From contig NC_087383.1 of assembly GCF_963675165.1 (NCBI RefSeq), positions 3,626,979 through 3,690,978 on the forward strand: a stretch of DNA of 64,000 nucleotides, given 5' to 3'. The notes below the pieces were generated by a model. The model was given only the letters and a program-made list of their open reading frames with translations. It did not search any database and was not told the origin of the DNA. A program made the position numbers and the translations under genes. Shown in pieces: positions 16,740 through 40,345 of this stretch (positions within the stretch are counted from its first letter, which is position 1; each line of letters opens with the position of its first letter). Source of the DNA: Halichondria panicea. Lineage: Eukaryota > Porifera > Demospongiae > Suberitida > Halichondriidae.

Positions 16740-17130
16740 TTCAAAGGTCCTCTATACATGCATGGAGGCTTGCTGAATGTTTGTCTTTCTCTTCCTAGGT
16801 CATCTGAGCCACTAGTGAGTCTGTCACCTGATCCAGAGGGACAGTATTTTTATTACATGTCTACCTATATCTGCAATAATAGATTGGGTGGCGAAAATAT
16901 AATTATACTACGTATATATAATTACCTCCGGATAGTATAGGAAGTCGATCTTGGTATCATTTTGAAGCTTAGAGAACGCTTTATCCGATTCAACAATAAA
17001 ACGGTATACCCGCGTTAAGGGCCCTTATAACATGGACTCTTGCTAATCTGCTTCACCTCGATATAATTATTATAACGTCTGTTTCGTTTGTCACGGATGG
17101 CTAGCTAAATCAATACTGTATAAACTCGCC
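16740..17130 (-). pseudogene. Decayed copy of the last GTF2E1 exon and its intron
   Basis: 16744-16845 matches 45187-45302, the terminal TFIIE-alpha exon: stop codon context TCAAAGGTCCTC, then GCATGGAGGCTTGCTGA and GAGCCACTAGTGAGTCTGTC. The similarity fades through the following intron to about 17.1 kb. No other TFIIE exons follow, so it is a dead fragment left by a duplication. Confidence 0.75.
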
Positions 17131-17767
17131 TTAAAATACCGCCCAGCTATACCTCACTGTTTCATGCTATGTTCTTTCGATTGCAAATTGAGTATAAATC
17201 GCAAAGAGTGAGCTTGCGCATGCAATTTCCCATGCAATTTGCGAAACTCAATCAAGCTTGTACAATATATCTTTCACATTCGATACCCTCCCATTCGAAC
17301 CCGATATATGGTATGTTACTAGTTTAGCGCGCATGCATCGAGCATAATTATGAAAACAAAAACCTATACCGTTATTGTATATGAAATCACAATATTAGGC
17401 TCTGGAACATGGAGAATCATGCTGGTAGCTGAGAATAGTAGGCATGTATATATGCATGCAGGTTTTGGAAATACAGGTCAGTCGAGTCAGTAGTATATAA
17501 ATATCTAGGCCTTTACTGAATGTATGGGAGTGTACTGGGCATATACAAATTGGTGGATAAATTATCTACTTAGCATGGCATCATTCATGATTCTATATAT
17601 ATAGGCTATCAATATTATAGTGTTTGATATAATTATATATAGATAGTCATGTGCATGGCCATTAAAGTTTGATGATATAATTACTTGTGCGACAACATAG
17701 GATGTGGTCTATATGTTGTGCTTTGGAGGAATAATGTGGGAATTTTGAATAAAGGCTGTAAGAATAG
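17131..17767. other. Left flank of the transposon composite
   Basis: AT-rich, no gene seen. It ends in GTAAGAATAG directly before the left direct repeat; the ATAG at 17764-17767 is repeated on the far side at 37201-37204. Confidence 0.5.
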
Positions 17768-18708
17768 CCCTTTCCTTGCCATTCGTGAAATCTGGAACAG
17801 GAGCGTCTTTAGGTCGATCAATTAGTGTGGATCCGGCCTCACCACGCCTCCAAGTCATTCTATTAGTCTAGATCCGGCTAGCAATTCTAGCTGGGACTCC
17901 CAGTTCTAGCTCCTTTTGTTTAGCGTGTCAGAGACTGGGAGAAGATGATTGGCACTCCCTGGCTCCTTTGGATGTACAGCTGTCCAGATCCCTAGAACAT
18001 ACCCTCCATTCTGACGAGTTATCAGTGCATAGGGTGCTTACTAGATTCTTGCCAGCCAGTACAGTTCAAGCTACACACAGCACCGCTCAACTATTCTCTA
18101 CCCCATTATCTAGCTAAATCTGGTCCAACTAGACAGCAGACACAGCTAGTTAATTCAGTAAAGCCAGGGGTAGCCCTACTTCTACCGTTGTTCAGTACCC
18201 ACGGTAACAATTCCTCTGGGCTGGGCTAACTAGTTGAGCCACGCCTCCCAATTCTCAAGGCTAGGTACATGTCTCTGTCTAGCTGCTTCTTCAGCTTCTT
18301 GCTCAGTTTTGTGGCTTAGAGAAAGGCCAGCTACTCAGGGGGAAGAGTCCAGATGAAAGTCTGGCAGCCAGGTGACGTCCAAACGGTCAGTTATTCTTTC
18401 CACCAACTTTTTAATCTAGTCTAGTCCTGCTTGCACTGCTACTACTACTGCTGCCTACTGCTGCTACTCTTCCTAGCTAGTCAAAGGTTTCTTTTTTTTT
18501 TTTTTTTTTTTTTATAACTACATATGCACAAAGAGACATCAAAGCTTACATCAAAGGACACAGATTTTTAGCCTACTTGACTGATAAGGCGGTTACCTAG
18601 ACTACAGTTTGTTTGTCAGGGAGGAGCTCACATACAACTTCATCTAATTCATCATAACGATTCCTTACCCATTGTTGTAATTTCTACAACAGATTGCCAA
18701 GGAAAGAG
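17768..18708 (+). mobile_element. 941-bp terminal direct repeat R1
   Basis: Begins CCCTTTCCTTGCCA and ends in TGCCAAGGAAAGAG, whose reverse complement CTCTTTCCTTGGCA matches the start at 12 of 14 positions, so R has short terminal inverted repeats. A second copy (R2, 36260-37200) has the same length and the same 22-T run, and I noticed no difference by eye. No reading frame of note. It includes a CTG/CTA-rich tract near 18437 and a palindromic TGTTGTA..TACAACA pair near its right end. R1 is preceded by ATAG and followed by ATAA. It may be a terminal region of the piggyBac element or a separate short element that captured it. Confidence 0.85.
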
Positions 18709-18874
18709 ATAATTACAACAGAATTTACAACAGAGTGGGTTAGGGCCTCTCATATACAACTGAATTCTTTATCACAATTTTATTAATCATTGAAATAATA
18801 CCCCTTTCCTCCCCTCTCCAAGGCCAATTTAGACCAGGAGAGTACCATCTAACAAAAATCAGTCACACAGCACA

Positions 18875-21800
18875 TTAGCTAGCACATGTGTGTCCGATAA
18901 CAGAGTGTCCTTTGCATATTCTTATGCGACAGTGGGGACATGCCATTGCAGTGTGTTGCTGCTCTCTGCTAGGGATCTTCTCCCGAACACACACTTGACA
19001 GCGCCCACGAGACACTCCGACACTATTTGCACTCACACGTGCGCCCTGTGATGGGGGGAAAACGATATTTAGACTGGCCAGACCTGAGGCACTGCTACGA
19101 GTACGTGGCACACCCAATAGACTATGAATTAGTTCCAATCGAAACCCTTTCAAAGGCATGGCCTTTGAACCCACCCTGACACAGTTGTGCCTGTATAGAA
19201 TGTATGCATTATTCACACTAACGTCAAGGAATTGAAAGAAAATCCTGAACCAATACCGCCGACACTTTCTATCGTACCCATAGGTTTTCCTCATACGCCC
19301 TGTATTGTCAACTCCTCCCATGTACATGTTATATGCAGGGAGACAGGGGGGGACACTCTGAGAGCGTAGGGTACCGTCTTTGTGCATTCGCATTACAGTG
19401 TGGGGCATATGGTCAGGGAACACATTTGTTGCAAAGGACACAACTCTACGGTCGTTAAACATAGAGTAAGAAATATCACCAACAGTCATGGACGTATAGT
19501 CACCTTTGTCGAGTACCACATCCTTAAGACTTGCTGGGAAACCAGCAGCATTCTTCAAAATTGTGCCGACAGTAAACACATTTTGCTTAGCCAACTCTTC
19601 TATCAATGGACCGGACGTGTAAAAGTTGTCCATGTACACAACATGCTGATGACCATAAAAAGGAGTGAGTAAACGATGGACTACATTTTTCACAAGCCCT
19701 TTCACAGCTATCTTTTTCCCAGAGGAATCGGTGAGCTTACCACTGTATACATCAAACACACAGAGATACCCACAGCATGAACATGAGCAGCACCATACCT
19801 TGAACCCCAGTTTAACAGGCTTCTTGGGCATATGAATTTTCCCGCTTTTACGACCCTTGTACTTTATCATCATCTCATCAACGGAAAGCTCCTGACTGGG
19901 ATTATACCTCATGAAGTAGTTGGCTTTAAGAGTCTCTAAAACAGTTTTTAGCTTGCTAGTTACCTTACGTGCATCAGTGATGGACGTATTGTCCTCACAG
20001 TGCAGATACCGCCATAAACTTTGGAACCTTTTGAGCGACATTACATTGCTCACACATTGTACACCTAAAAGGGGATCCTTGGACCAGTAGTCCGTAATTT
20101 CAGGGAGCCTATGAATGCCCATCTCTAGTACAATCCCCAAAAACACCCACAATTCGGCACTGTTTGTAGCTGACCAACCCTTAGCACCACACTGCCTAGC
20201 GTACAGGTTGGTCTGTTCGGCTATGTACTCACACAAACTATCGGGCCAAAGTAACTTAACAAAATCTAGGCATGGAGTTACAGACGGATCAAGTTGATCG
20301 ACAGGACCGACCACACCGCCAAAGACGGGGTATCTTCCTGTGGACTTAGCTTTTTGGAGTCCATTGTCCCTCGCCAGCTTCCTCCGTTTGGGAGTCGGAG
20401 CCATGCCATCGACCATTTCGTCATCATCCTCCACTGCAGCATCTGCACGGAAACAAAGCATGAATATCATTAGAGTACCACAAGAGTGCTCGCCAGTGCA
20501 GGTGGGGGACAGGCTATGAATGTCATTATGTGGGCGTACCACACGCTAGTGGTGCTATGAATATCATTAACTACTGGGGGGGGGGTTAGGGCGCATAGGT
20601 ACAGTACAGCAGAGGAAAAGGCTCGTCCACATCAAAGGCTCGTGGGAGGAGCCCAACAAACCACAACAACCATGAATGTCATTAGTGGGCGTACCACACG
20701 CTAGTGGTGCTATGAATATCATTAACAACTGGGGGGGGGGTTAGGGCGCATAGGTACAGTACAGCAGAGGAAAAGGCTCGTCCCCATCAAAGGCTCGTGG
20801 GAGGATCCCAACAAACCACAACAACCATGAATGTCATTACGTGGGCGTACCACACGCTAGTGGTGCTATGAATATCATTAACTACTGGGGGGGGGGGTTA
20901 GGGCGCATAGGTACAGTACAGCAGAGGAAAAGGCTCGTGGGAGGAGCCCAACAAACCACAACAACCATGAATGTCATTACGTGGGCGTACCACACGCTAG
21001 TGGTGCTATGAATATCATTAACTACTGGGGGGGGGGGTTAGGGCACATAGGTACAGTACAGCAGAGGAAAAGGCTCGTCCCCATCAAAGGCTCGTGGGAG
21101 GATCCCAACAAACCACAACAACCATGAATGTCATTACGTGGGCGTACCACACGCTAGTGGTGCTATGAATATCATTAACTACTGGGGGGGGGGGGGTTAG
21201 GGCGCATAGGTACAGTACAGCAGAGGAAAAGGCTCGTCCACATCAAAGGCTCGTGGGAGGAGCCCAACAAACCACAACAACCATGAATGTCATTACGTGG
21301 GCGTACCACACGCTAGTGGTGCTATGAATATCATTAACAACTGGGGGGTGGGGTTAGGGCACATAGGTACAGTACAGCAGAGGAAAAGGCTCGTCCCCAT
21401 CAAAGGCTCGTGGGAGGAGCCCAACAAACCACAACAACCATGAATGTCATTATGTGGGCGTACCACACGATAGTGGTGCTATGAATATCATTAACTACTG
21501 GGGGGGGGGGGTTAGGGCACATAGGTACAGTACAGCAGAGGAAAAGGCTCGTCCACATCAAAGGCTCGTGGGAGGAGCCCAACAAACCACAACAACCATG
21601 AATGTCATTACGTGGGCGTACCGCACGCTAGTGGTGCTATGAATATCATTAACTACTGGGGGGGGGTTAGGGCACATAGGTACAGTACAGCAGAGGAAAA
21701 GGCTCGTCCCCATCAAAGGCTCGTGGGAGGAGCCCAACAAACCACAACAACCATGAATGTCATTACGTGGGCGTACCACACGCTAGTGGTGCTATGAATA

Positions 21801-23073
21801 TCATTAACTACTGGGGGGGGGGGGGGTTAGGGCACATAGGTACAGTACAGCAGAGGAAAAGGCTCGTCCCCATCAAAGGCTCGTGGGAGGAGCCCAACAA
21901 ACCACAACAACCATGAATGTCATTACGTGGGCGTACCACATGCTAGTGGTGCTATGAATATCATTAACTACTGGGGGGGGGGGTTAGGGCACATAGGTAC
22001 AGTACAGCAGAGGAAAAGGCTCGTCCCCATCAAAGGCTCGTGGGAGGAGCCCAACAAACCACAACAACCATGAATGTCATTACGTGGGTGTACCACACGC
22101 TAGTGGTGCTATGAATATCATTAACTACTGGGGGGGGGGGGTTAGGGCACATAGGTACAGTACAGCAGAGGAAAAGGCTCGTGGGAGGAGCCCAACAAAC
22201 CACAACAACCATGAATGTCATTACGTGGGCGTACCGCACGAGTGTGGTGCTATGAATATAATTAACTACTGGGGGGGGGGGTTAGGGCACACAGGTACAG
22301 TACAGCAGAGGAAAAGGCTCGTGGAAAAGGCTCGTCCACATCAAAGGCTCGTGGGAGGAGCCCAACAAACCACAACAACCATGAATGTCATTACGTGGGC
22401 GTACCACACGCTAGTGGTGCTATGAATATCATTAACTACTGGGGGGGGGGGGGGGGTTAGGGCACATAGGTACAGTACAGCAGAGGAAAAGGCTCGTCCA
22501 CATCAAAGGCTCGTGGGAGGAGCCCAACAAACCACAACAACCATGAATGTCATTATGTGGGCGTACCGCACGCTAGTGGTGCTATGAATATAATTAACTA
22601 CTGGGGGGGGTTAGGGCACATAGGTACAGTACAGCAGAGGAAAAGGCTCGTCCACATCAAAGGCTCGTGGGAGGAGCCCAACAAACCACAACAACCATGA
22701 ATATCAATACGTGGGCGTACCACACGCTAGTGGTGCTATGAATATCATTAACAACTGGGGGTTAGGGTACAGTACAGTACTGCAGTCAAGGCGACGCCAA
22801 AAAGAGGCTCACACAATGTAGGAGGAGCCACAAAAGGCATGCACATGACGCCTCCGCCAAAAAGAGGCCACATATCGTTAGGGCATCACAATGCTGCCTC
22901 CCCAACCACTATTTAATGGTGCAATGACACAAACCTGAATCACTCTCCAGATCTGTCTCAAAATCGTCATCACTGGGCTCGTCATGGTCATAACAGACTT
23001 CCTGGTCCTCCTCAAGCTCTCTGACAGTGTGCTCAAGCTCGCTGACAGTGTCAAGGAGTCCAATCAGCTCCAT
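18875..23073 (-). CDS. piggyBac transposase, copy 1 (2 exons)
   Basis: Exon 1 is 22935-23073 (ATG, 46 codons plus one base) and exon 2 is 18875-20442, joined across a 2.5-kb intron with GTTTGT donor and TTTCCGTGCAG acceptor; 568 aa. Exon 1 supplies the acidic N-terminus typical of the family (ELEEDQEV, EPSDDDFETDLESDS). Catalytic Asp triad: D235 in SVDEMMIKYKGR, D318 in VYMDNFYTSGPL, D425 in GGVDNTGRMRKTYG; spacing 83 and 107 compares with 78 and 101 in the moth enzyme. A C-terminal Cys/His zinc domain (CQVC...ACPHC...CKGH) follows. The enzyme cuts and pastes DNA without leaving a scar, normally at TTAA. The frame upstream of exon 2 is open but is intron. All expected residues are present, so it may be active. 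Confidence 0.92.
20517..22767. repeat. G-rich minisatellite in transposase intron, unit 1 (15 copies)
   Basis: Period about 157 bp, with about 140-bp variants lacking a TCCCCATCAAAGGCTCG-type segment. Each copy has GAATGTCATTA, a small hairpin ACCACACGCTAGTGGT, GAATATCATTAAC, a G run of 5-16 followed by TTAGGG, GTACAGTACAGCAGAGG, and CAACAAACCACAACAACC. The G run lies on the template strand of the transposase gene. Run length is the most variable position. Confidence 0.92.
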
Positions 23074-23261
23074 TTGGATTCAAAAGTTTTGAAAAATAAT
23101 TACAACAGAATTTACAACAGAGTGGGTTAGGGCCTCTCATATACAACTGAATTCTTTATCACAATTTTATTAATCATTGAAATAATACCCCTTTCCTCCC
23201 CTCTCCAAGGCCAATTTAGACCAGGAGAGTACCATCTAACAAAAATCAGTCACACAGCACA

Positions 23262-26200
23262 TTAGCTAGCACATGTGTGTCCGATAACAGAGTGTCCTTT
23301 GCATATTCTTATGCGACAGTGGGGACATGCCATTGCAGTGTGTTGCTGCTCTCTGCTAGGGATCTTCTCCCGAACACACACTTGACAGCGCCCACGAGAC
23401 ACTCCGACACTATTTGCACTCACACGTGCGCCCTGTGATGGGGGGAAAACGATATTTAGACTGGCCAGACCTGAGGCACTGCTACGAGTACGTGGCACAC
23501 CCAATAGACTATGAATTAGTTCCAATCGAAACCCTTTCAAAGGCATGGCCTTTGAACCCACCCTGACACAGTTGTGCCTGTATAGAATGTATGCATTATT
23601 CACACTAACGTCAAGGAATTGAAAGAAAATCCTGAACCAATACCGCCGACACTTTCTATCGTACCCATAGGTTTTCCTCATACGCCCTGTATTGTCAACT
23701 CCTCCCATGTACATGTTATATGCAGGGAGACAGGGGGGGACACTCTGAGAGCGTAGGGTACCGTCTTTGTGCATTCGCATTACAGTGTGGGGCATATGGT
23801 CAGGGAACACATTTGTTGCAAAGGACACAACTCTACGGTCGTTAAACATAGAGTAAGAAATATCACCAACAGTCATGGACGTATAGTCACCTTTGTCGAG
23901 TACCACATCCTTAAGACTTGCTGGGAAACCAGCAGCATTCTTCAAAATTGTGCCGACAGTAAACACATTTTGCTTAGCCAACTCTTCTATCAATGGACCG
24001 GACGTGTAAAAGTTGTCCATGTACACAACATGCTGATGACCATAAAAAGGAGTGAGTAAACGATGGACTACATTTTTCACAAGCCCTTTCACAGCTATCT
24101 TTTTCCCAGAGGAATCGGTGAGCTTACCACTGTATACATCAAACACACAGAGATACCCACAGCATGAACATGAGCAGCACCATACCTTGAACCCCAGTTT
24201 AACAGGCTTCTTGGGCATATGAATTTTCCCGCTTTTACGACCCTTGTACTTTATCATCATCTCATCAACGGAAAGCTCCTGACTGGGATTATACCTCATG
24301 AAGTAGTTGGCTTTAAGAGTCTCTAAAACAGTTTTTAGCTTGCTAGTTACCTTACGTGCATCAGTGATGGACGTATTGTCCTCACAGTGCAGATACCGCC
24401 ATAAACTTTGGAACCTTTTGAGCGACATTACATTGCTCACACATTGTACACCTAAAAGGGGATCCTTGGACCAGTAGTCCGTAATTTCAGGGAGCCTATG
24501 AATGCCCATCTCTAGTACAATCCCCAAAAACACCCACAATTCGGCACTGTTTGTAGCTGACCAACCCTTAGCACCACACTGCCTAGCGTACAGGTTGGTC
24601 TGTTCGGCTATGTACTCACACAAACTATCGGGCCAAAGTAACTTAACAAAATCTAGGCATGGAGTTACAGACGGATCAAGTTGATCGACAGGACCGACCA
24701 CACCGCCAAAGACGGGGTATCTTCCTGTGGACTTAGCTTTTTGGAGTCCATTGTCCCTCGCCAGCTTCCTCCGTTTGGGAGTCGGAGCCATGCCATCGAC
24801 CATTTCGTCATCATCCTCCACTGCAGCATCTGCACGGAAACAAAGCATGAATATCATTAGAGTACCACAAGAGTGCTCGCCAGTGCAGGTGGGGGACAGG
24901 CTATGAATGTCATTATGTGGGCGTACCACACGCTAGTGGTGCTATGAATATCATTAACTACTGGGGGGGGGGGGTTAGGGCGCATAGGTACAGTACAGCA
25001 GAGGAAAAGGCTCGTCCACATCAAAGGCTCGTGGGAGGAGCCCAACAAACCACAACAACCATGAATGTCATTAGTGGGCGTACCACACGCTAGTGGTGCT
25101 ATGAATATCATTAACAACTGGGGGGGGGGTTAGGGCGCATAGGTACAGTACAGCAGAGGAAAAGGCTCGTCCCCATCAAAGGCTCGTGGGAGGATCCCAA
25201 CAAACCACAACAACCATGAATGTCATTACGTGGGCGTACCACACGCTAGTGGTGCTATGAATATCATTAACTACTGGGGGGGGGGGGTTAGGGCGCATAG
25301 GTACAGTACAGCAGAGGAAAAGGCTCGTGGGAGGAGCCCAACAAACCACAACAACCATGAATGTCATTACGTGGGCGTACCACACGCTAGTGGTGCTATG
25401 AATATCATTAACTACTGGGGGGGGGGGGTTAGGGCACATAGGTACAGTACAGCAGAGGAAAAGGCTCGTCCCCATCAAAGGCTCGTGGGAGGATCCCAAC
25501 AAACCACAACAACCATGAATGTCATTACGTGGGCGTACCACACGCTAGTGGTGCTATGAATATCATTAACTACTGGGGGGGGGGGGGTTAGGGCGCATAG
25601 GTACAGTACAGCAGAGGAAAAGGCTCGTCCACATCAAAGGCTCGTGGGAGGAGCCCAACAAACCACAACAACCATGAATGTCATTACGTGGGCGTACCAC
25701 ACGCTAGTGGTGCTATGAATATCATTAACAACTGGGGGGTGGGGTTAGGGCACATAGGTACAGTACAGCAGAGGAAAAGGCTCGTCCCCATCAAAGGCTC
25801 GTGGGAGGAGCCCAACAAACCACAACAACCATGAATGTCATTATGTGGGCGTACCACACGATAGTGGTGCTATGAATATCATTAACTACTGGGGGGGGGG
25901 GGGTTAGGGCACATAGGTACAGTACAGCAGAGGAAAAGGCTCGTCCACATCAAAGGCTCGTGGGAGGAGCCCAACAAACCACAACAACCATGAATGTCAT
26001 TACGTGGGCGTACCGCACGCTAGTGGTGCTATGAATATCATTAACTACTGGGGGGGGGTTAGGGCACATAGGTACAGTACAGCAGAGGAAAAGGCTCGTC
26101 CCCATCAAAGGCTCGTGGGAGGAGCCCAACAAACCACAACAACCATGAATGTCATTACGTGGGCGTACCACACGCTAGTGGTGCTATGAATATCATTAAC

Positions 26201-27461
26201 TACTGGGGGGGGGGGGGTTAGGGCACATAGGTACAGTACAGCAGAGGAAAAGGCTCGTCCCCATCAAAGGCTCGTGGGAGGAGCCCAACAAACCACAACA
26301 ACCATGAATGTCATTACGTGGGCGTACCACATGCTAGTGGTGCTATGAATATCATTAACTACTGGGGGGGGGGGTTAGGGCACATAGGTACAGTACAGCA
26401 GAGGAAAAGGCTCGTCCCCATCAAAGGCTCGTGGGAGGAGCCCAACAAACCACAACAACCATGAATGTCATTACGTGGGTGTACCACACGCTAGTGGTGC
26501 TATGAATATCATTAACTACTGGGGGGGGGGGGTTAGGGCACATAGGTACAGTACAGCAGAGGAAAAGGCTCGTGGGAGGAGCCCAACAAACCACAACAAC
26601 CATGAATGTCATTACGTGGGCGTACCGCACGAGTGTGGTGCTATGAATATAATTAACTACTGGGGGGGGGGTTAGGGCACACAGGTACAGTACAGCAGAG
26701 GAAAAGGCTCGTGGAAAAGGCTCGTCCACATCAAAGGCTCGTGGGAGGAGCCCAACAAACCACAACAACCATGAATGTCATTACGTGGGCGTACCGCACG
26801 CTAGTGGTGCTATGAATATCATTAACTACTGGGGGGGGGGGGGGTTAGGGCACATAGGTACAGTACAGCAGAGGAAAAGGCTCGTCCACATCAAAGGCTC
26901 GTGGGAGGAGCCCAACAAACCACAACAACCATGAATGTCATTATGTGGGCGTACCGCACGCTAGTGGTGCTATGAATATAATTAACTACTGGGGGGGGTT
27001 AGGGCACATAGGTACAGTACAGCAGAGGAAAAGGCTCGTCCACATCAAAGGCTCGTGGGAGGAGCCCAACAAACCACAACAACCATGAATATCAATACGT
27101 GGGCGTACCACACGCTAGTGGTGCTATGAATATCATTAACAACTGGGGGTTAGGGTACAGTACAGTACTGCAGTCAAGGCGACGCCAAAAAGAGGCTCAC
27201 ACAATGTAGGAGGAGCCACAAAAGGCATGCACATGACGCCTCCGCCAAAAAGAGGCCACATATCGTTAGGGCATCACAATGCTGCCTCCCCAACCACTAT
27301 TTAATGGTGCAATGACACAAACCTGAATCACTCTCCAGATCTGTCTCAAAATCGTCATCACTGGGCTCGTCATGGTCATAACAGACTTCCTGGTCCTCCT
27401 CAAGCTCTCTGACAGTGTGCTCAAGCTCGCTGACAGTGTCAAGGAGTCCAATCAGCTCCAT
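23262..27461 (-). CDS. piggyBac transposase, copy 2 (2 exons)
   Basis: Exon 1 27323-27461, exon 2 23262-24829. The predicted exon 2 protein is identical to copy 1, with the same Asp triad and zinc domain and the same splice sites. Its promoter region would be the 3' end of unit 3. Intact. Confidence 0.9.
24904..27154. repeat. G-rich minisatellite in transposase intron, unit 2 (15 copies)
   Basis: Same 15-copy order of full and short variants as in unit 1, so the array was copied with the whole unit rather than expanding separately. Confidence 0.9.
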
Positions 27462-27649
27462 TTGGATTCAAAAGTTTTGAAAAATAATTACAACAGAATT
27501 TACAACAGAGTGGGTTAGGGCCTCTCATATACAACTGAATTCTTTATCACAATTTTATTAATCATTGAAATAATACCCCTTTCCTCCCCTCTCCAAGGCC
27601 AATTTAGACCAGGAGAGTACCATCTAACAAAAATCAGTCACACAGCACA

Positions 27650-30600
27650 TTAGCTAGCACATGTGTGTCCGATAACAGAGTGTCCTTTGCATATTCTTAT
27701 GCGACAGTGGGGACATGCCATTGCAGTGTGTTGCTGCTCTCTGCTAGGGATCTTCTCCCGAACACACACTTGACAGCGCCCACGAGACACTCCGACACTA
27801 TTTGCACTCACACGTGCGCCCTGTGATGGGGGGAAAACGATATTTAGACTGGCCAGACCTGAGGCACTGCTACGAGTACGTGGCACACCCAATAGACTAT
27901 GAATTAGTTCCAATCGAAACCCTTTCAAAGGCATGGCCTTTGAACCCACCCTGACACAGTTGTGCCTGTATAGAATGTATGCATTATTCACACTAACGTC
28001 AAGGAATTGAAAGAAAATCCTGAACCAATACCGCCGACACTTTCTATCGTACCCATAGGTTTTCCTCATACGCCCTGTATTGTCAACTCCTCCCATGTAC
28101 ATGTTATATGCAGGGAGACAGGGGGGGACACTCTGAGAGCGTAGGGTACCGTCTTTGTGCATTCGCATTACAGTGTGGGGCATATGGTCAGGGAACACAT
28201 TTGTTGCAAAGGACACAACTCTACGGTCGTTAAACATAGAGTAAGAAATATCACCAACAGTCATGGACGTATAGTCACCTTTGTCGAGTACCACATCCTT
28301 AAGACTTGCTGGGAAACCAGCAGCATTCTTCAAAATTGTGCCGACAGTAAACACATTTTGCTTAGCCAACTCTTCTATCAATGGACCGGACGTGTAAAAG
28401 TTGTCCATGTACACAACATGCTGATGACCATAAAAAGGAGTGAGTAAACGATGGACTACATTTTTCACAAGCCCTTTCACAGCTATCTTTTTCCCAGAGG
28501 AATCGGTGAGCTTACCACTGTATACATCAAACACACAGAGATACCCACAGCATGAACATGAGCAGCACCATACCTTGAACCCCAGTTTAACAGGCTTCTT
28601 GGGCATATGAATTTTCCCGCTTTTACGACCCTTGTACTTTATCATCATCTCATCAACGGAAAGCTCCTGACTGGGATTATACCTCATGAAGTAGTTGGCT
28701 TTAAGAGTCTCTAAAACAGTTTTTAGCTTGCTAGTTACCTTACGTGCATCAGTGATGGACGTATTGTCCTCACAGTGCAGATACCGCCATAAACTTTGGA
28801 ACCTTTTGAGCGACATTACATTGCTCACACATTGTACACCTAAAAGGGGATCCTTGGACCAGTAGTCCGTAATTTCAGGGAGCCTATGAATGCCCATCTC
28901 TAGTACAATCCCCAAAAACACCCACAATTCGGCACTGTTTGTAGCTGACCAACCCTTAGCACCACACTGCCTAGCGTACAGGTTGGTCTGTTCGGCTATG
29001 TACTCACACAAACTATCGGGCCAAAGTAACTTAACAAAATCTAGGCATGGAGTTACAGACGGATCAAGTTGATCGACAGGACCGACCACACCGCCAAAGA
29101 CGGGGTATCTTCCTGTGGACTTAGCTTTTTGGAGTCCATTGTCCCTCGCCAGCTTCCTCCGTTTGGGAGTCGGAGCCATGCCATCGACCATTTCGTCATC
29201 ATCCTCCACTGCAGCATCTGCACGGAAACAAAGCATGAATATCATTAGAGTACCACAAGAGTGCTCGCCAGTGCAGGTGGGGGACAGGCTATGAATGTCA
29301 TTATGTGGGCGTACCACACGCTAGTGGTGCTATGAATATCATTAACTACTGGGGGGGGGGGGTTAGGGCGCATAGGTACAGTACAGCAGAGGAAAAGGCT
29401 CGTCCACATCAAAGGCTCGTGGGAGGAGCCCAACAAACCACAACAACCATGAATGTCATTAGTGGGCGTACCACACGCTAGTGGTGCTATGAATATCATT
29501 AACAACTGGGGGGGGGGTTAGGGCGCATAGGTACAGTACAGCAGAGGAAAAGGCTCGTCCCCATCAAAGGCTCGTGGGAGGATCCCAACAAACCACAACA
29601 ACCATGAATGTCATTACGTGGGCGTACCACACGCTAGTGGTGCTATGAATATCATTAACTACTGGGGGGGGGGGGTTAGGGCGCATAGGTACAGTACAGC
29701 AGAGGAAAAGGCTCGTGGGAGGAGCCCAACAAACCACAACAACCATGAATGTCATTACGTGGGCGTACCACACGCTAGTGGTGCTATGAATATCATTAAC
29801 TACTGGGGGGGGGGGGTTAGGGCACATAGGTACAGTACAGCAGAGGAAAAGGCTCGTCCCCATCAAAGGCTCGTGGGAGGATCCCAACAAACCACAACAA
29901 CCATGAATGTCATTACGTGGGCGTACCACACGCTAGTGGTGCTATGAATATCATTAACTACTGGGGGGGGGGGGGTTAGGGCGCATAGGTACAGTACAGC
30001 AGAGGAAAAGGCTCGTCCACATCAAAGGCTCGTGGGAGGAGCCCAACAAACCACAACAACCATGAATGTCATTACGTGGGCGTACCACACGCTAGTGGTG
30101 CTATGAATATCATTAACAACTGGGGGGTGGGGTTAGGGCACATAGGTACAGTACAGCAGAGGAAAAGGCTCGTCCCCATCAAAGGCTCGTGGGAGGAGCC
30201 CAACAAACCACAACAACCATGAATGTCATTATGTGGGCGTACCACACGATAGTGGTGCTATGAATATCATTAACTACTGGGGGGGGGGGGTTAGGGCACA
30301 TAGGTACAGTACAGCAGAGGAAAAGGCTCGTCCACATCAAAGGCTCGTGGGAGGAGCCCAACAAACCACAACAACCATGAATGTCATTACGTGGGCGTAC
30401 CGCACGCTAGTGGTGCTATGAATATCATTAACTACTGGGGGGGGGTTAGGGCACATAGGTACAGTACAGCAGAGGAAAAGGCTCGTCCCCATCAAAGGCT
30501 CGTGGGAGGAGCCCAACAAACCACAACAACCATGAATGTCATTACGTGGGCGTACCACACGCTAGTGGTGCTATGAATATCATTAACTACTGGGGGGGGG

Positions 30601-31848
30601 GGGGGTTAGGGCACATAGGTACAGTACAGCAGAGGAAAAGGCTCGTCCCCATCAAAGGCTCGTGGGAGGAGCCCAACAAACCACAACAACCATGAATGTC
30701 ATTACGTGGGCGTACCACATGCTAGTGGTGCTATGAATATCATTAACTACTGGGGGGGGGGGTTAGGGCACATAGGTACAGTACAGCAGAGGAAAAGGCT
30801 CGTCCCCATCAAAGGCTCGTGGGAGGAGCCCAACAAACCACAACAACCATGAATGTCATTACGTGGGTGTACCACACGCTAGTGGTGCTATGAATATCAT
30901 TAACTACTGGGGGGGGGGGTTAGGGCACATAGGTACAGTACAGCAGAGGAAAAGGCTCGTGGGAGGAGCCCAACAAACCACAACAACCATGAATGTCATT
31001 ACGTGGGCGTACCGCACGAGTGTGGTGCTATGAATATAATTAACTACTGGGGGGGGGGTTAGGGCACACAGGTACAGTACAGCAGAGGAAAAGGCTCGTG
31101 GAAAAGGCTCGTCCACATCAAAGGCTCGTGGGAGGAGCCCAACAAACCACAACAACCATGAATGTCATTACGTGGGCGTACCGCACGCTAGTGGTGCTAT
31201 GAATATCATTAACTACTGGGGGGGGGGGGGGTTAGGGCACATAGGTACAGTACAGCAGAGGAAAAGGCTCGTCCACATCAAAGGCTCGTGGGAGGAGCCC
31301 AACAAACCACAACAACCATGAATGTCATTATGTGGGCGTACCGCACGCTAGTGGTGCTATGAATATAATTAACTACTGGGGGGGGTTAGGGCACATAGGT
31401 ACAGTACAGCAGAGGAAAAGGCTCGTCCACATCAAAGGCTCGTGGGAGGAGCCCAACAAACCACAACAACCATGAATATCAATACGTGGGCGTACCACAC
31501 GCTAGTGGTGCTATGAATATCATTAACAACTGGGGGTTAGGGTACAGTACAGTACTGCAGTCAAGGCGACGCCAAAAAGAGGCTCACACAATGTAGGAGG
31601 AGCCACAAAAGGCATGCACATGACGCCTCCGCCAAAAAGAGGCCACATATCGTTAGGGCATCACAATGCTGCCTCCCCAACCACTATTTAATGGTGCAAT
31701 GACACAAACCTGAATCACTCTCCAGATCTGTCTCAAAATCGTCATCACTGGGCTCGTCATGGTCATAACAGACTTCCTGGTCCTCCTCAAGCTCTCTGAC
31801 AGTGTGCTCAAGCTCGCTGACAGTGTCAAGGAGTCCAATCAGCTCCAT
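27650..31848 (-). CDS. piggyBac transposase, copy 3 (2 exons)
   Basis: Exon 1 31710-31848, exon 2 27650-29217. Protein identical to the other copies in exon 2; catalytic Asp residues and zinc ligands intact. Its 5' flank is the 3' end of unit 4. Confidence 0.9.
29292..31541. repeat. G-rich minisatellite in transposase intron, unit 3
   Basis: Collinear with the arrays of the other units; G runs are mostly one or two bases different in length. Confidence 0.9.
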
Positions 31849-32036
31849 TTGGATTCAAAAGTTTTGAAAAATAATTACAACAGAATTTACAACAGAGTGG
31901 GTTAGGGCCTCTCATATACAACTGAATTCTTTATCACAATTTTATTAATCATTGAAATAATACCCCTTTCCTCCCCTCTCCAAGGCCAATTTAGACCAGG
32001 AGAGTACCATCTAACAAAAATCAGTCACACAGCACA

Positions 32037-35000
32037 TTAGCTAGCACATGTGTGTCCGATAACAGAGTGTCCTTTGCATATTCTTATGCGACAGTGGGGA
32101 CATGCCATTGCAGTGTGTTGCTGCTCTCTGCTAGGGATCTTCTCCCGAACACACACTTGACAGCGCCCACGAGACACTCCGACACTATTTGCACTCACAC
32201 GTGCGCCCTGTGATGGGGGGAAAACGATATTTAGACTGGCCAGACCTGAGGCACTGCTACGAGTACGTGGCACACCCAATAGACTATGAATTAGTTCCAA
32301 TCGAAACCCTTTCAAAGGCATGGCCTTTGAACCCACCCTGACACAGTTGTGCCTGTATAGAATGTATGCATTATTCACACTAACGTCAAGGAATTGAAAG
32401 AAAATCCTGAACCAATACCGCCGACACTTTCTATCGTACCCATAGGTTTTCCTCATACGCCCTGTATTGTCAACTCCTCCCATGTACATGTTATATGCAG
32501 GGAGACAGGGGGGGACACTCTGAGAGCGTAGGGTACCGTCTTTGTGCATTCGCATTACAGTGTGGGGCATATGGTCAGGGAACACATTTGTTGCAAAGGA
32601 CACAACTCTACGGTCGTTAAACATAGAGTAAGAAATATCACCAACAGTCATGGACGTATAGTCACCTTTGTCGAGTACCACATCCTTAAGACTTGCTGGG
32701 AAACCAGCAGCATTCTTCAAAATTGTGCCGACAGTAAACACATTTTGCTTAGCCAACTCTTCTATCAATGGACCGGACGTGTAAAAGTTGTCCATGTACA
32801 CAACATGCTGATGACCATAAAAAGGAGTGAGTAAACGATGGACTACATTTTTCACAAGCCCTTTCACAGCTATCTTTTTCCCAGAGGAATCGGTGAGCTT
32901 ACCACTGTATACATCAAACACACAGAGATACCCACAGCATGAACATGAGCAGCACCATACCTTGAACCCCAGTTTAACAGGCTTCTTGGGCATATGAATT
33001 TTCCCGCTTTTACGACCCTTGTACTTTATCATCATCTCATCAACGGAAAGCTCCTGACTGGGATTATACCTCATGAAGTAGTTGGCTTTAAGAGTCTCTA
33101 AAACAGTTTTTAGCTTGCTAGTTACCTTACGTGCATCAGTGATGGACGTATTGTCCTCACAGTGCAGATACCGCCATAAACTTTGGAACCTTTTGAGCGA
33201 CATTACATTGCTCACACATTGTACACCTAAAAGGGGATCCTTGGACCAGTAGTCCGTAATTTCAGGGAGCCTATGAATGCCCATCTCTAGTACAATCCCC
33301 AAAAACACCCACAATTCGGCACTGTTTGTAGCTGACCAACCCTTAGCACCACACTGCCTAGCGTACAGGTTGGTCTGTTCGGCTATGTACTCACACAAAC
33401 TATCGGGCCAAAGTAACTTAACAAAATCTAGGCATGGAGTTACAGACGGATCAAGTTGATCGACAGGACCGACCACACCGCCAAAGACGGGGTATCTTCC
33501 TGTGGACTTAGCTTTTTGGAGTCCATTGTCCCTCGCCAGCTTCCTCCGTTTGGGAGTCGGAGCCATGCCATCGACCATTTCGTCATCATCCTCCACTGCA
33601 GCATCTGCACGGAAACAAAGCATGAATATCATTAGAGTACCACAAGAGTGCTCGCCAGTGCAGGTGGGGGACAGGCTATGAATGTCATTATGTGGGCGTA
33701 CCACACGCTAGTGGTGCTATGAATATCATTAACTACTGGGGGGGGGGGGTTAGGGCGCATAGGTACAGTACAGCAGAGGAAAAGGCTCGTCCACATCAAA
33801 GGCTCGTGGGAGGAGCCCAACAAACCACAACAACCATGAATGTCATTAGTGGGCGTACCACACGCTAGTGGTGCTATGAATATCATTAACAACTGGGGGG
33901 GGGGTTAGGGCGCATAGGTACAGTACAGCAGAGGAAAAGGCTCGTCCCCATCAAAGGCTCGTGGGAGGATCCCAACAAACCACAACAACCATGAATGTCA
34001 TTACGTGGGCGTACCACACGCTAGTGGTGCTATGAATATCATTAACTACTGGGGGGGGGGGGTTAGGGCGCATAGGTACAGTACAGCAGAGGAAAAGGCT
34101 CGTGGGAGGAGCCCAACAAACCACAACAACCATGAATGTCATTACGTGGGCGTACCACACGCTAGTGGTGCTATGAATATCATTAACTACTGGGGGGGGG
34201 GGTTAGGGCACATAGGTACAGTACAGCAGAGGAAAAGGCTCGTCCCCATCAAAGGCTCGTGGGAGGATCCCAACAAACCACAACAACCATGAATGTCATT
34301 ACGTGGGCGTACCACACGCTAGTGGTGCTATGAATATCATTAACTACTGGGGGGGGGGGGTTAGGGCGCATAGGTACAGTACAGCAGAGGAAAAGGCTCG
34401 TCCACATCAAAGGCTCGTGGGAGGAGCCCAACAAACCACAACAACCATGAATGTCATTACGTGGGCGTACCACACGCTAGTGGTGCTATGAATATCATTA
34501 ACAACTGGGGGGTGGGGTTAGGGCACATAGGTACAGTACAGCAGAGGAAAAGGCTCGTCCCCATCAAAGGCTCGTGGGAGGAGCCCAACAAACCACAACA
34601 ACCATGAATGTCATTATGTGGGCGTACCACACGATAGTGGTGCTATGAATATCATTAACTACTGGGGGGGGGGGGTTAGGGCACATAGGTACAGTACAGC
34701 AGAGGAAAAGGCTCGTCCACATCAAAGGCTCGTGGGAGGAGCCCAACAAACCACAACAACCATGAATGTCATTACGTGGGCGTACCGCACGCTAGTGGTG
34801 CTATGAATATCATTAACTACTGGGGGGGGGTTAGGGCACATAGGTACAGTACAGCAGAGGAAAAGGCTCGTCCCCATCAAAGGCTCGTGGGAGGAGCCCA
34901 ACAAACCACAACAACCATGAATGTCATTACGTGGGCGTACCACACGCTAGTGGTGCTATGAATATCATTAACTACTGGGGGGGGGGGGGGTTAGGGCACA

Positions 35001-36233
35001 TAGGTACAGTACAGCAGAGGAAAAGGCTCGTCCCCATCAAAGGCTCGTGGGAGGAGCCCAACAAACCACAACAACCATGAATGTCATTACGTGGGCGTAC
35101 CACATGCTAGTGGTGCTATGAATATCATTAACTACTGGGGGGGGGGGGTTAGGGCACATAGGTACAGTACAGCAGAGGAAAAGGCTCGTCCCCATCAAAG
35201 GCTCGTGGGAGGAGCCCAACAAACCACAACAACCATGAATGTCATTACGTGGGTGTACCACACGCTAGTGGTGCTATGAATATCATTAACTACTGGGGGG
35301 GGGGTTAGGGCACATAGGTACAGTACAGCAGAGGAAAAGGCTCGTGGGAGGAGCCCAACAAACCACAACAACCATGAATGTCATTACGTGGGCGTACCGC
35401 ACGAGTGTGGTGCTATGAATATAATTAACTACTGGGGGGGGGGTTAGGGCACACAGGTACAGTACAGCAGAGGAAAAGGCTCGTGGAAAAGGCTCGTCCA
35501 CATCAAAGGCTCGTGGGAGGAGCCCAACAAACCACAACAACCATGAATGTCATTACGTGGGCGTACCGCACGCTAGTGGTGCTATGAATATCATTAACTA
35601 CTGGGGGGGGGGGGGGTTAGGGCACATAGGTACAGTACAGCAGAGGAAAAGGCTCGTCCACATCAAAGGCTCGTGGGAGGAGCCCAACAAACCACAACAA
35701 CCATGAATGTCATTATGTGGGCGTACCGCACGCTAGTGGTGCTATGAATATAATTAACTACTGGGGGGGGTTAGGGCACATAGGTACAGTACAGCAGAGG
35801 AAAAGGCTCGTCCACATCAAAGGCTCGTGGGAGGAGCCCAACAAACCACAACAACCATGAATATCAATACGTGGGCGTACCACACGCTAGTGGTGCTATG
35901 AATATCATTAACAACTGGGGGTTAGGGTACAGTACAGTACTGCAGTCAAGGCGACGCCAAAAAGAGGCTCACACAATGTAGGAGGAGCCACAAAAGGCAT
36001 GCACATGACGCCTCCGCCAAAAAGAGGCCACATATCGTTAGGGCATCACAATGCTGCCTCCCCAACCACTATTTAATGGTGCAATGACACAAACCTGAAT
36101 CACTCTCCAGATCTGTCTCAAAATCGTCATCACTGGGCTCGTCATGGTCATAACAGACTTCCTGGTCCTCCTCAAGCTCTCTGACAGTGTGCTCAAGCTC
36201 GCTGACAGTGTCAAGGAGTCCAATCAGCTCCAT
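32037..36233 (-). CDS. piggyBac transposase, copy 4 (2 exons)
   Basis: Exon 1 36095-36233, exon 2 32037-33604. Same protein as copies 1-3. The start codon is only 27 bp from R2, so R2 read on the minus strand would be its 5' UTR and promoter. If R carries the native promoter, this copy is the best candidate source of transposase. Confidence 0.9.
33679..35927. repeat. G-rich minisatellite in transposase intron, unit 4
   Basis: Collinear with the other arrays. Confidence 0.9.
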
Positions 36234-36259
36234 TTGGATTCAAAAGTTTTGAAAAATAA

Positions 36260-37200
36260 CCCTTTCCTTGCCATTCGTGAAATCTGGAACAGGAGCGTCT
36301 TTAGGTCGATCAATTAGTGTGGATCCGGCCTCACCACGCCTCCAAGTCATTCTATTAGTCTAGATCCGGCTAGCAATTCTAGCTGGGACTCCCAGTTCTA
36401 GCTCCTTTTGTTTAGCGTGTCAGAGACTGGGAGAAGATGATTGGCACTCCCTGGCTCCTTTGGATGTACAGCTGTCCAGATCCCTAGAACATACCCTCCA
36501 TTCTGACGAGTTATCAGTGCATAGGGTGCTTACTAGATTCTTGCCAGCCAGTACAGTTCAAGCTACACACAGCACCGCTCAACTATTCTCTACCCCATTA
36601 TCTAGCTAAATCTGGTCCAACTAGACAGCAGACACAGCTAGTTAATTCAGTAAAGCCAGGGGTAGCCCTACTTCTACCGTTGTTCAGTACCCACGGTAAC
36701 AATTCCTCTGGGCTGGGCTAACTAGTTGAGCCACGCCTCCCAATTCTCAAGGCTAGGTACATGTCTCTGTCTAGCTGCTTCTTCAGCTTCTTGCTCAGTT
36801 TTGTGGCTTAGAGAAAGGCCAGCTACTCAGGGGGAAGAGTCCAGATGAAAGTCTGGCAGCCAGGTGACGTCCAAACGGTCAGTTATTCTTTCCACCAACT
36901 TTTTAATCTAGTCTAGTCCTGCTTGCACTGCTACTACTACTGCTGCCTACTGCTGCTACTCTTCCTAGCTAGTCAAAGGTTTCTTTTTTTTTTTTTTTTT
37001 TTTTTATAACTACATATGCACAAAGAGACATCAAAGCTTACATCAAAGGACACAGATTTTTAGCCTACTTGACTGATAAGGCGGTTACCTAGACTACAGT
37101 TTGTTTGTCAGGGAGGAGCTCACATACAACTTCATCTAATTCATCATAACGATTCCTTACCCATTGTTGTAATTTCTACAACAGATTGCCAAGGAAAGAG
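36260..37200 (+). mobile_element. 941-bp terminal direct repeat R2
   Basis: Same orientation and length as R1. Preceded by ATAA (36256-36259) and followed by ATAG (37201-37204). Same inverted-repeat ends as R1. Confidence 0.85.
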
Positions 37201-37307
37201 ATAGACAATATCTCTCAAGCACGCCTTATATCTATAGTATATACATTCATGTTGTATATATATACAGTGTGTGTATTAGCTATATGTACCCTTTCAAATG
37301 TTGGTGC

Positions 37308-37483: not shown

Positions 37484-40345
37484 ATGTTTGTTGATGGTAG
37501 ATTAATTATTAATTGTGTTTAACAATTAGATCTAGGACTATAGATCTTCACAAACTATACAAGCTCATGCATATGAAGGAGCCTGGAGGAGGTTTCTAAA
37601 GCTCTATAAGATAAAATGTACTATAAAATTAATATACTTTATCCAAGAACAATAAGTACATTAATGTATAATAAAAATCCACCTCTTTAGTAAAGAGGTG
37701 GACTTTACAATGTCTAAATGTTCTGTCCTGGAAAAATTGGTCCAGGCTGGTTTTAATTGCCGAAATTGACTACCAAAAATGGTCTGCATGCCATTAGCAA
37801 GCAGTAAGCAATGCCCTGAGCGTCCTTGTGTAACTTTTTGTACAAGTCAACTGTCTGTTTATCTAGATAAGCATGCATCAGCTACTAGCTATAGATCTAG
37901 TGCAGTTACTTCCACTGGATACTTGCTTTCAGCAGGTTGTCTTTCATTTATGGTAGCTACATACGGACTACATTTGGTGACCGATTTTGGCGTGACAGTC
38001 TCACTAGGTCAAAATTAATATTTTAGTTATAAATTACTAAACGTAATTATCATGTAAAATTGAATAGATCTATATAATAGTAGAGCTGTTCTGCATCCTT
38101 ACTTTGTTCTTTGTGCATGCATGGGTATATACACTGTAACAAATATACAGTGTAGGCATGCATGCATATGTAATCTGTCATCTGTCTCAATCACTGACAC
38201 AAGAACTGCACCGGATATGAGAACATTACTTTTAACTATACATAGAATCTTGTTATCCATATCCCCTTGCTTAGCACGTTAACTACAACGTATCCAGAAC
38301 CATATAATAACTACATGATATGCCAGTTTTTCCTGATTCCAAAAATCCATGTGTTTATAGGTTTTGTATATATCTATATATAGCTGAGAAAAAGCATAAG
38401 GCCAAGCTGCATGTTTCACGAACTTTCACAATTTATGGACCAGGCAGGCCGGTAAAAAGGAATCCCGTAAGAGACCTGTGGTGCCTCTTGTAGAAATTGT
38501 TGGGCTTCCCAAAACCACAAGGATAAGTTGTGGCAACAAAATTAATACAGCAAGGAGTGGGTGCATGGTTTTGGGTTTTTGGGGGAGTTTAACAAAAAGA
38601 AACTCGCATGCATCCGTGAAGCATGCAGTAGCTTGTAACCAGATATACGTACGTATACGAGTATATATCTGCAAACAGGAGAAAGAAAAAGTGTTGTTCT
38701 ACATGTGTAGCTCTTAGAGATATCTATTGATGTTGCACACATGATCACGTGTCCATACTAGGTCTAGAGACTTATTAATAGCAGAATATCAACTCACATG
38801 CATGTATAGAATACCCTGACATTGTTCTCTCTAGTCAGGTGCACATAATTATAAACGAATTAGCATTGTAGATAGACTATAGCTAGAGTAGGCTGATTTT
38901 CTCCATTGTAACGCTCTATGCATGCAGGTAGCTTTTTGTTGGTGGTAGATTAATTATTAGATCTAATAATTGTGTTTAGATCTAGGACTAAATCTCTCTC
39001 TATATATACAATGTATTATGAATGTAATTGTTCAAAAGGTCACCTATTTAAACTAAAGTGAACAGCAAGCTCATGTGAAGGAGCCTGCAGGAGGTTTCTA
39101 AAAGCTCTAAAGATAAAAGGTACTATAAATATCTACTAGTACATTAATGTATAATAAAAATCCACCTCTTTACAATGTCTAAATATTCTGTCCTCGAAAA
39201 ATTTGGTCCAGGCTGGTTTTGATTGCCGAAATTAATCTGTCTGTATGCCATTAGCAAGCCAGTGAGCAATGCCCTGAGTGTCCATGTGTAACTTCTTGTA
39301 CACGTCAACTGTCAATTTATAAAGTTGAACTAGATAATTATATAGTGCATGCATCAGCTACTAGCTATAGATCTAGTGCAGTTACATCCACTGGATACTT
39401 GTCTTCAGCAGGTTGTCTTTCATTTATGGTGCATGCGGACTATACATTTGGTGACCGATTTTGGTGTGACAGTCTGATTGATCATTCTATAGGTCAAAAT
39501 TAATATTTTAGTTATTCACTAAACGTAATTATCATGTAAAGTTGACTAGATCTATTAATAGTAGAGCTATTATGCATCCTTACTTTGTTCTTTGTGCATG
39601 CATGTGTATAATAATATGAATAGCATGTATATACACTGTAACAAATATACAGTGTAGGCATGCATGTGTCATCTGTCTCGATCACTGACACAAATGCACC
39701 GGATATATATAAGAACATTGCTTTTAACTATACATAGATTCTTGTTAACCGTATCCCCTTCCTTAGCACGTTAACTACAACGTATATCCAGAACCATATA
39801 GTAATACATGATACGCCAGTTTTTCCTGACTCCAAAAATCCATGTGCTCAGACTTTCACAATTTATGGACCAGGCAGGCCGGTACAAATGAATCCAATTA
39901 AAAAGTAAGAGACCTGTGGTGCCTCTTGTAGAAATTGTTGGCTTCCCCAAACCACAAGGATAAGTGTGGCAACAAAATTAATACAGCAAGGAGTGCATGG
40001 GTATAGTTTTGGGGGGAGTTTCACAAAAAGAAACTCGCTTGCATCCGTGAAGCATGCAGTAGCTTGTAACCAGATACACGTACGTATACGAGTATCTGCC
40101 AACAGAAAAAGTGTTAATTGTTCTACACGTGTAGCTCTTATATTATAGAGATGTTGCACACATGATCACGTGTCCATACTAGATCTAGAGACTTATAACA
40201 TCCATTCAGAATATCAACTCACATGCATGTATAGAATCCCCTGACATTGTTCTCTCTAGTCAGGTGCACATAATTATAAACGAATTAGCATTGTAGATAG
40301 ACTATAGCTAGAGTATGCTGAATTTCTCCATTGTAACGCTATATA
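37484..40345 (+). repeat. Two diverged tandem copies of a 1.4-kb non-coding block
   Basis: Copy 1 (about 37484-38930) and copy 2 (about 38931-40345) are collinear: GGTAGATTAATTATTA, AAGGAGCCTG.AGGAGGTTTC, TCCACCTCTTTA, CAGCAGGTTGTCTTTCATTT, GACCAGGCAGGCCGGTA, CTATAGCTAGAGTA. Both start with sequence resembling the racemase 3' flank. Copy 1 keeps a perfect 23-bp hairpin (CCACCTCTTTAGTAAAGAGG plus TGG, about 37680-37702) that is truncated in copy 2. No coding content. Confidence 0.75.

What the first reader, a model, noticed from the sequence alone, without database searches (positions are those of the whole stretch)
17768..37200. A piggyBac array bounded by 941-bp LTR-like direct repeats that themselves have inverted ends
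Cut-and-paste elements are normally bounded by short inverted repeats. Here four tandem transposase units are enclosed by two same-orientation 941-bp repeats. Each repeat starts CCCTTTCCTTGCCA and ends in a near inverse of it, and the whole 19.4 kb is flanked by ATAG on both sides. This looks like a composite transposon in the bacterial sense (two end modules carrying cargo), or a piggyBac lineage that acquired long direct termini. I know of no described piggyBac with this layout.
Basis: partly seen in the sequence, partly recalled or inferred. Interest (0 to 1): 0.85.

Follow-up and report, generated by a model that had tools for sequence, protein, structure and literature searches.

The report
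Composite piggyBac with long direct repeats
Four near-identical jumping-gene units sit in a row between two identical 941-letter end pieces, a bacterial-style "two ends plus cargo" layout described for one other animal transposon lineage but not seen for the piggyBac family in the papers searched.

Summary
Two identical 941-bp direct repeats (R) enclose four near-identical 4.39-kb units. Each unit carries an apparently intact two-exon piggyBac-superfamily transposase on the minus strand. R has 14-bp imperfect inverted ends (12 of 14), and ATAG flanks the whole 19.4 kb. Added here: every unit boundary is a single ATAA, and each unit-unit joint is what remains if an ATAA-flanked R is removed with one ATAA kept. 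The units have no inverted ends, so R is the likeliest mobile end module.

The layout is not unprecedented. KolobokP (PMC9587614) has long terminal direct repeats with their own inverted ends and repeat-(internal)n-repeat multimers, including one with n=4 and a single TATA at the joints. Here the transposase is piggyBac, not Kolobok, and no second nuclease was found. My reading: a KolobokP-like composite in another superfamily, inserted at ATAG, its tandem units left by R excision from an (R-unit)n array. Against it: ATAA and ATAG are not canonical TTAA, and only one locus is known. No genome was held and scans for relatives found none, so mobility, copy number and species are untested; misassembly of the array is not excluded.

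The parts
17764..17767 (.). Left outer 4-bp flank ATAG (putative target-site duplication)
   Evidence: matches 37201-37204
17768..18708 (+). R1, 941-bp end module (long terminal direct repeat) with its own 14-bp imperfect inverted ends
   Evidence: 941/941 identical to R2; ends 12 of 14 inverted
18709..18712 (.). ATAA at the R1-unit 1 joint
18713..23095 (-). Unit 1: piggyBac transposase gene, exon 1 23073-22935, 2492-bp intron, exon 2 20442-18875 (568 aa), AATAAA from 18784
20516..22761 (.). ~157-bp minisatellite in the intron of unit 1 (15 copies counted by a conserved 15-mer)
23096..23099 (.). ATAA at the unit 1-unit 2 joint (single copy, scar-like)
23100..27483 (-). Unit 2, same gene
27484..27487 (.). 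ATAA at the unit 2-unit 3 joint
27488..31870 (-). Unit 3, same gene
31871..31874 (.). ATAA at the unit 3-unit 4 joint
31875..36255 (-). Unit 4, same gene; the only unit whose start codon has R directly upstream
36256..36259 (.). ATAA at the unit 4-R2 joint
36260..37200 (+). R2, 941-bp end module, identical to R1
37201..37204 (.). Right outer 4-bp flank ATAG

Best explanation
This is a composite DNA transposon of LTDR-(INT)4-LTDR form. R is an end module with its own inverted ends; the unit is a transposase gene of the piggyBac superfamily with no ends of its own. Shown: structure, joints, open reading frames. Inferred: the transposase acts on the outer ends of R1 and R2 and inserted the whole at ATAG. 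An earlier (R-unit)n array, made by unequal exchange or by circles between Rs, lost its inner Rs by piggyBac-type excision. Each loss left one ATAA and so fused units head to tail. R probably also supplies the promoter, because the start codon lies 22 bp from the nearest ATAA and only unit 4 has R upstream.
For: R1 = R2 over 941/941 and R ends inverted 12/14, while unit ends are not. Outer ATAG on both sides; ATAA at the R1-unit joint, at 3 of 3 unit-unit joints and at the unit-R2 joint. The R1-unit and unit-R2 joints overlap by exactly those 4 bases, as a cut at the R edges with a 4-nt stagger would give; piggyBac excision leaves 4-nt overhangs that allow seamless repair (PMC7351741, passages). 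Transposase: Pfam DDE_Tnp_1_7 E 7.7e-69; piggyBat 3e-34 and T. ni piggyBac 1.3e-25; 3 of 3 catalytic Asp kept (alignment; numbering counted by me against PMC7351741). TACAACAGA occurs 10 times in the window, all inside the composite (about 1 expected on both strands). These are copies of 3 independent places, one near the right end of R and two at the left end of the unit, and that end similarity is reached by 3 of 500 shuffles over 40 bp and 15 of 500 over 60 bp. KolobokP has the same multimers, one family with a single TATA at the joint (PMC9587614).
Against: Only one locus is known; no second copy, solo R or R-unit-R was found. The scans were of viral and prokaryote collections with exact words, so they could hardly have found one. 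ATAA and ATAG are not TTAA. PMC7351741 (passage) says the first T of the target cannot be replaced in T. ni piggyBac without losing a needed hydrogen bond, and here that base is A. That this transposase cuts R is not shown; the link is the layout and a 9-bp motif. The three other comparisons of R ends with unit ends showed no similarity (207, 405 and 474 of 500 shuffles as good). No internal R survives here, so (R-unit)n is inferred. The right end of R reads CTCT, not CCYT. Promoter activity of R is untested, and R2 has an ATG upstream of the transposase start in another frame.
Confidence: 0.64

Rival explanations
1. R is an ordinary large MITE (like mPok of Daphnia, ~750 bp) that inserted beside a piggyBac gene array by chance on both sides; the thing does not move as a unit.
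For: [quoted passage not shown] R looks like a MITE.
Against: Two independent insertions at ATAA would leave ATAA on the outer sides; both outer flanks are ATAG. R1 and R2 have the same orientation and are identical. The unit has no inverted ends, so it is no element by itself.
Confidence: 0.12
2. A solo R at ATAG captured an extrachromosomal circle of R and units by homologous recombination; the array grew by circle integration or unequal exchange, not by transposition of the composite.
For: Gives the same sequence: outer ATAG, identical Rs, tandem units. PMC9587614 proposes this as one route for KolobokP multimers.
Against: Does not by itself explain single ATAA joints at the exact edge of R; still needs R excision or joining of 4-nt ends.
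Confidence: 0.25
3. The unit-unit joints arose by microhomology (ATAA) repair or replication slippage without transposase.
For: The joint is a 4-bp microhomology; the array is very young (one substitution among four units).
Against: Breakpoints would have to fall at the precise edges of both R1 and R2 by chance (inference).
Confidence: 0.12
4. The four-unit array is an assembly error: real DNA may hold one unit, another number, or internal Rs.
For: Units are identical apart from G-run lengths and one substitution, and G runs are places where reads err (general knowledge); no reads are available.
Against: Joints are clean and the same in 3 of 3; R, outer ATAG and the ATAA edges at R do not depend on the number of units; KolobokP shows the same multimers in other assemblies.
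Confidence: 0.15

Closest known systems
KolobokP (Kojima and Bao 2022, PMC9587614; read: abstract, passages, Results parts 1-2 of 3, Discussion part 1 of 2)
   Same: Internal region with the transposase between long terminal direct repeats that have their own short inverted ends; short outer target duplications; LTDR-(INT)n-LTDR multimers, n=4 in one KolobokP-1_MeMe insertion; in that family the internal region starts and ends with the same 4 bases (TATA) and only one copy stands at the joint.
   Different: Transposase is piggyBac, not Kolobok; ends start CC and CT, not RR; no His-Me finger nuclease found; R is 941 bp, not ~450 or ~660; KolobokP duplications are 3-4 or 4-5 bp by family without strong target preference. 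Solo Rs could not be looked for in a genome.
piggyBac superfamily, e.g. T. ni piggyBac and piggyBat (PMC7351741: passages and two sections)
   Same: Transposase by sequence; catalytic DDD; Cys/His-rich C-terminus (by eye); CCC start at the left end; 4-bp flank; excision-like joints without footprint.
   Different: Flanks ATAG and ATAA instead of TTAA; long direct terminal repeats; transposase gene outside the end modules; tandem genes. R275 and Y283 of T. ni piggyBac (contacts at the 4-nt hairpin/target; Y283 stacks on the last A) are K and H here, R and Y in piggyBat (alignments, counted by me; two reference proteins only).
Pokey and mPok of Daphnia (PMC3849761, passages)
   Different: Ordinary inverted-repeat termini; no long direct terminal repeats and no multimers of the transposase gene alone in the passages I saw.
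Teratorn (PMC10175614, passages)
   Same: Composite element in which piggyBac ends carry other DNA.
   Different: About 180-kb fusion with a herpesvirus genome; short inverted repeats at its termini.
Bacterial composite transposons and IS26 pseudo-composites
   Same: Two end modules, each with inverted ends, around cargo (recalled, and as described in PMC9587614).
   Different: There the end module codes for the transposase; here the cargo does, and the frames that overlap R are at most 81 aa.

Membership tests
piggyBac superfamily | DDE_Tnp_1_7 transposase related to piggyBac | tested here: met
piggyBac superfamily | Catalytic D268, D346, D447 (T. ni numbering) | tested here: met
   3 of 3 aligned to Asp; numbering counted by me
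piggyBac superfamily | Termini beginning CCYT | tested here: inconclusive
   left CCCT, right (reverse complement) CTCT; rule from a PMC10175614 passage
piggyBac superfamily | TTAA target duplication | tested here: not met
   ATAG outside, ATAA inside. The middle TA is kept, as in the 11.87% of Pokey insertions that are not at TTAA (Table 2). Hence I file the transposase as piggyBac, not the whole element as a canonical piggyBac transposon.
KolobokP | Internal region between long terminal direct repeats with own inverted ends | tested here: met
KolobokP | INT-INT joints that keep one of the two terminal tetramers | tested here: met
   3 of 3 joints; compare
KolobokP | Kolobok DDD/E transposase, ends 5'-RR | tested here: not met
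   piggyBac transposase; ends CC and CT
[quoted passage not shown]
   The 7 other frames of 110 aa or more between the Rs all lie in the minisatellite; 4 of the 7 were scanned against Pfam, one weak match below its cut-off (FGF-BP1, 14.1 bits, cut-off 25), none a nuclease. A spliced or shorter gene would be missed.
KolobokP | Solo direct repeats and monomers elsewhere in the genome | not testable with these tools
   no genome held
LTR retrotransposon | reverse transcriptase/integrase between the repeats | tested here: not met
   the only frames of 110 aa or more outside the minisatellite are the transposase; it matches only the piggyBac family in Pfam

The most novel reading that the evidence does not exclude
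A separate piggyBac lineage independently evolved the KolobokP layout: mobile ends and transposase gene are split into two modules. It uses a relaxed ATAR target linked to changes at the target-contacting residues (Y283 to H, R275 to K). Its own seamless excision of the ends turns the composite into tandem arrays of transposase genes, most of them without the R promoter.
Probability: 0.4. Interest if true: 0.76.

Novelty: new variant of a known kind. Interest (0 to 1): 0.62.

Why it matters
If it holds, the composite layout with long direct ends is not a peculiarity of Kolobok and its accompanying nuclease, since a second transposase superfamily with a 4-bp flank shows it, apparently without such a nuclease. 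That would shift the explanation of the multimers from nuclease-induced crossover to transposase excision plus ordinary recombination, and piggyBac, which has solved structures and cell assays, makes it testable. A natural piggyBac relative with ATAA/ATAG flanks would also bear on what sets the TTAA specificity.

Tried and rejected
No host genome is held, so copies, solo R and the empty site could not be sought. The transposase found nothing in viral contigs, no confirmed relative in bacterial/archaeal genome contigs (14 stretches matched a pattern, 0 confirmed) and nothing in phage records. The scans start from six exact peptides, and none of these collections holds animal genomes. R-end patterns gave 0 hits in viral contigs and 0 in genome contigs. 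Rfam and tRNA scans of the window were empty.

Empty site from paralogous flanks: the joined flanks score above shuffles against 14900-15480 (133 against a maximum of 83 in 60 shuffles), but the signal comes from a duplicate that begins about 150 bp to the right of R2. The parts next to the site were tested alone: 60 reached by 28 of 300 shuffles, 39 by 27 of 300, 37 by 19 of 300. I rejected this as evidence. Two other stretches scored below the best shuffle (78 against 95, 61 against 89).

The MAFFT alignment of the units shows a large block of difference in unit 4. That was misalignment inside the minisatellite; run-length comparison shows one substitution and 10 G-run differences only.

An extra CCCTTTCC in each unit (18802 in unit 1) was considered as a relic terminus and dropped: about two such 8-mers are expected by chance in the window (my estimate). 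No structure prediction was run, since four identical copies give no alignment depth.

Literature: 10 searches were made, judged from listings except for the papers named. One search listed 20 of 2,058 papers. After I looked at passages of four listed papers that use the words terminal direct repeats (PMC9942856, PMC5182062, PMC3212892, PMC11441545): in the passages shown these are short repeats at Crypton ends or at ciliate eliminated sequences and insertions, not long ends of a piggyBac element. Other papers were not opened, except the KolobokP and Teratorn papers.
Full report
WHAT IS THERE. The window looks eukaryotic: genes with introns, probably an animal, perhaps a sponge (my guess from gene content; not tested). 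No genome is held for it. Between 17768 and 37200 lie R1 (941 bp), four units and R2 (941 bp). R1 and R2 are identical over 941 of 941 bases and in the same orientation; blastn at E 1e-3 finds no third copy in the window. Reading along the + strand: ATAG, R1, ATAA, unit 1, ATAA, unit 2, ATAA, unit 3, ATAA, unit 4, ATAA, R2, ATAG. Unit lengths counted with the leading ATAA are 4387, 4388, 4387 and 4385. After run lengths are set aside, units 2-4 are identical and unit 1 has one substitution; 10 G runs vary in length.

R. The ends of R are an imperfect inverted repeat, CCCTTTCCTTGCCA against CTCTTTCCTTGGCA (12 of 14; the similarity of the 40-bp ends is reached by 2 of 500 shuffles). No reading frame (stop to stop) that overlaps R exceeds 81 aa. 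A 9-mer, TACAACAGA, occurs 10 times in the window, all on the + strand and all in the composite: once near the right end of each R and twice at the left end of each unit. As R and the units are copies, these are 3 independent places. About one occurrence on both strands is expected from a first-order model. The right end of R and the left end of the unit are alike at a level reached by 3 of 500 shuffles over 40 bp and 15 of 500 over 60 bp; the three other end pairs compared are not alike (207, 405 and 474 of 500). I take the motif as a possible transposase- or regulation-related site; this is inference.

THE UNIT. It has no inverted ends (401 of 500 shuffles as good). On the minus strand it carries exon 1 (139 nt, acidic), a GT-AG intron of 2490-2493 bp and exon 2, giving 568 aa, the same in 4 of 4 units. 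The splice is my reading of the frames, not supported by RNA. The protein matches Pfam DDE_Tnp_1_7 (7.7e-69 for exon 2; 9.4e-69 spliced), piggyBat (3e-34) and T. ni piggyBac (1.3e-25). The catalytic D268, D346 and D447 all align with Asp. R275 is K, Y283 is H and K290 is K here, whereas piggyBat has R, Y and K (residues counted by me in the alignments; two reference proteins only). In PMC7351741 these residues contact the hairpin end, and Y283 stacks on the last base of TTAA (sections read). The intron is filled with a ~157-bp minisatellite, 15 copies by a conserved 15-mer in each unit. The start codon lies 22 bp from the nearest ATAA. For unit 4 the upstream DNA is R2; for unit 1 it is the 3' end of the next unit (shown), and the unit-unit joints are the same for units 2 and 3. 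If R carries the promoter, only unit 4 would be transcribed normally. That is a prediction.

READING OF THE JOINTS. The joint R1-unit ends in ATAA plus the unit's left end; the joint unit-R2 is the unit's right end plus ATAA. Each unit-unit joint is the unit's right end, one ATAA and the unit's left end, in 3 of 3 cases. So the joint equals what is left if R, flanked by ATAA on both sides, is cut out with one ATAA kept. piggyBac transposase makes 4-nt overhangs at the donor and the site can be sealed without a footprint; excision does not need TTAA at the flanks (PMC7351741, passages). The same paper says that integration in cells is overwhelmingly at TTAA and that the first T cannot be replaced, which speaks against a standard piggyBac integration at ATAG. 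Outer flanks agree (ATAG, chance about 0.005) and differ from the inner ATAA. Two independent R insertions at ATAA would not leave that pattern; insertion of the composite as a unit, or growth of a composite inside one R already inserted at ATAG, would.

COMPARISON. KolobokP (PMC9587614) has the same anatomy in another superfamily: LTDR-INT-LTDR, solo LTDRs, (LTDR-INT)n-LTDR, and LTDR-(INT)n-LTDR. For KolobokP-1_MeMe the internal region starts and ends with TATA, only one TATA stands at INT-INT joints, and one of four such insertions is LTDR-(INT)4-LTDR. The authors explain INT-INT by excision of an LTDR or a monomer. They report that with excision 1-5 flanking bases can be lost on one side, and they propose crossover induced by the element's own His-Me nuclease, unequal crossover, or circles as the source of multimers. 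The present locus has a piggyBac transposase and, as far as frames of 110 aa or more go, no second gene outside the minisatellite (4 of the 7 minisatellite frames scanned, none above a cut-off). It therefore works like KolobokP in layout but is not a KolobokP. The transposase belongs to the piggyBac superfamily; the element departs from canonical piggyBac in its flanks (ATAG/ATAA, not TTAA). Pokey of Daphnia, a piggyBac element, has 5.09% of insertions at ATAA and 5.93% at TTAT, with the middle TA kept (PMC3849761, passages), so ATAA is not foreign to the superfamily. ATAG is not in that table.

LITERATURE LIMITS. Searches of open PMC papers for piggyBac with composite structure, long or terminal direct repeats, LTDR, multimers, and for KolobokP by name brought up KolobokP and Teratorn as composite elements. 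In the listings, and in the passages opened, I saw no piggyBac with long terminal direct repeats. One search found the word KolobokP in 1 paper only. Repbase reports and subscription papers were not searched.

WHAT IS NOT SHOWN. That R or the composite moves; that this transposase acts on R; that R is a promoter; how many units the living genome has; what species it is. One locus cannot tell a lineage from an accident. The rival with most weight is recombination between a solo R and a circle. An assembly error in the number of units would not change the R edges or the ATAG flanks.

Noticed in passing
20516-22761 and the same place in units 2-4: The transposase intron holds a ~157-bp minisatellite with G runs followed by TTAGGG; the G runs and one substitution are the only places where the units differ.
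   Followed up: partly
16264-16846 and 41556-45303: A shortened, diverged paralogue of the 1196-aa gene (41397-44987) and its 3' side lies just left of the composite (76-87% identity in three pieces).
   Followed up: partly
37487-38664 and 38935-40095: Tandem duplication of about 1.2 kb to the right of R2 (73-92% identity in four pieces); no sign that it reaches the insertion site.
   Followed up: partly
61271-61580; 4909-5176; 10651-10864; 13531-13583: A dispersed repeat with four diverged pieces at three other places in the window, 67-85% identity; not identified.
   Followed up: no
7252-8226: Frame with a TIR domain (Pfam TIR_2, 1.2e-12) in its C-terminal half.
   Followed up: no
R2-unit 4, minus strand upstream of 36233: An ATG in R2 opens a short frame out of phase that overlaps the transposase start (read by eye); it might lower translation if it is in the transcript.
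   Followed up: no
18802 in unit 1 and the same place in units 2-4: CCCTTTCC, the first 8 bases of R, recurs near the 3' end of each unit; probably chance, possibly a relic end.
   Followed up: no
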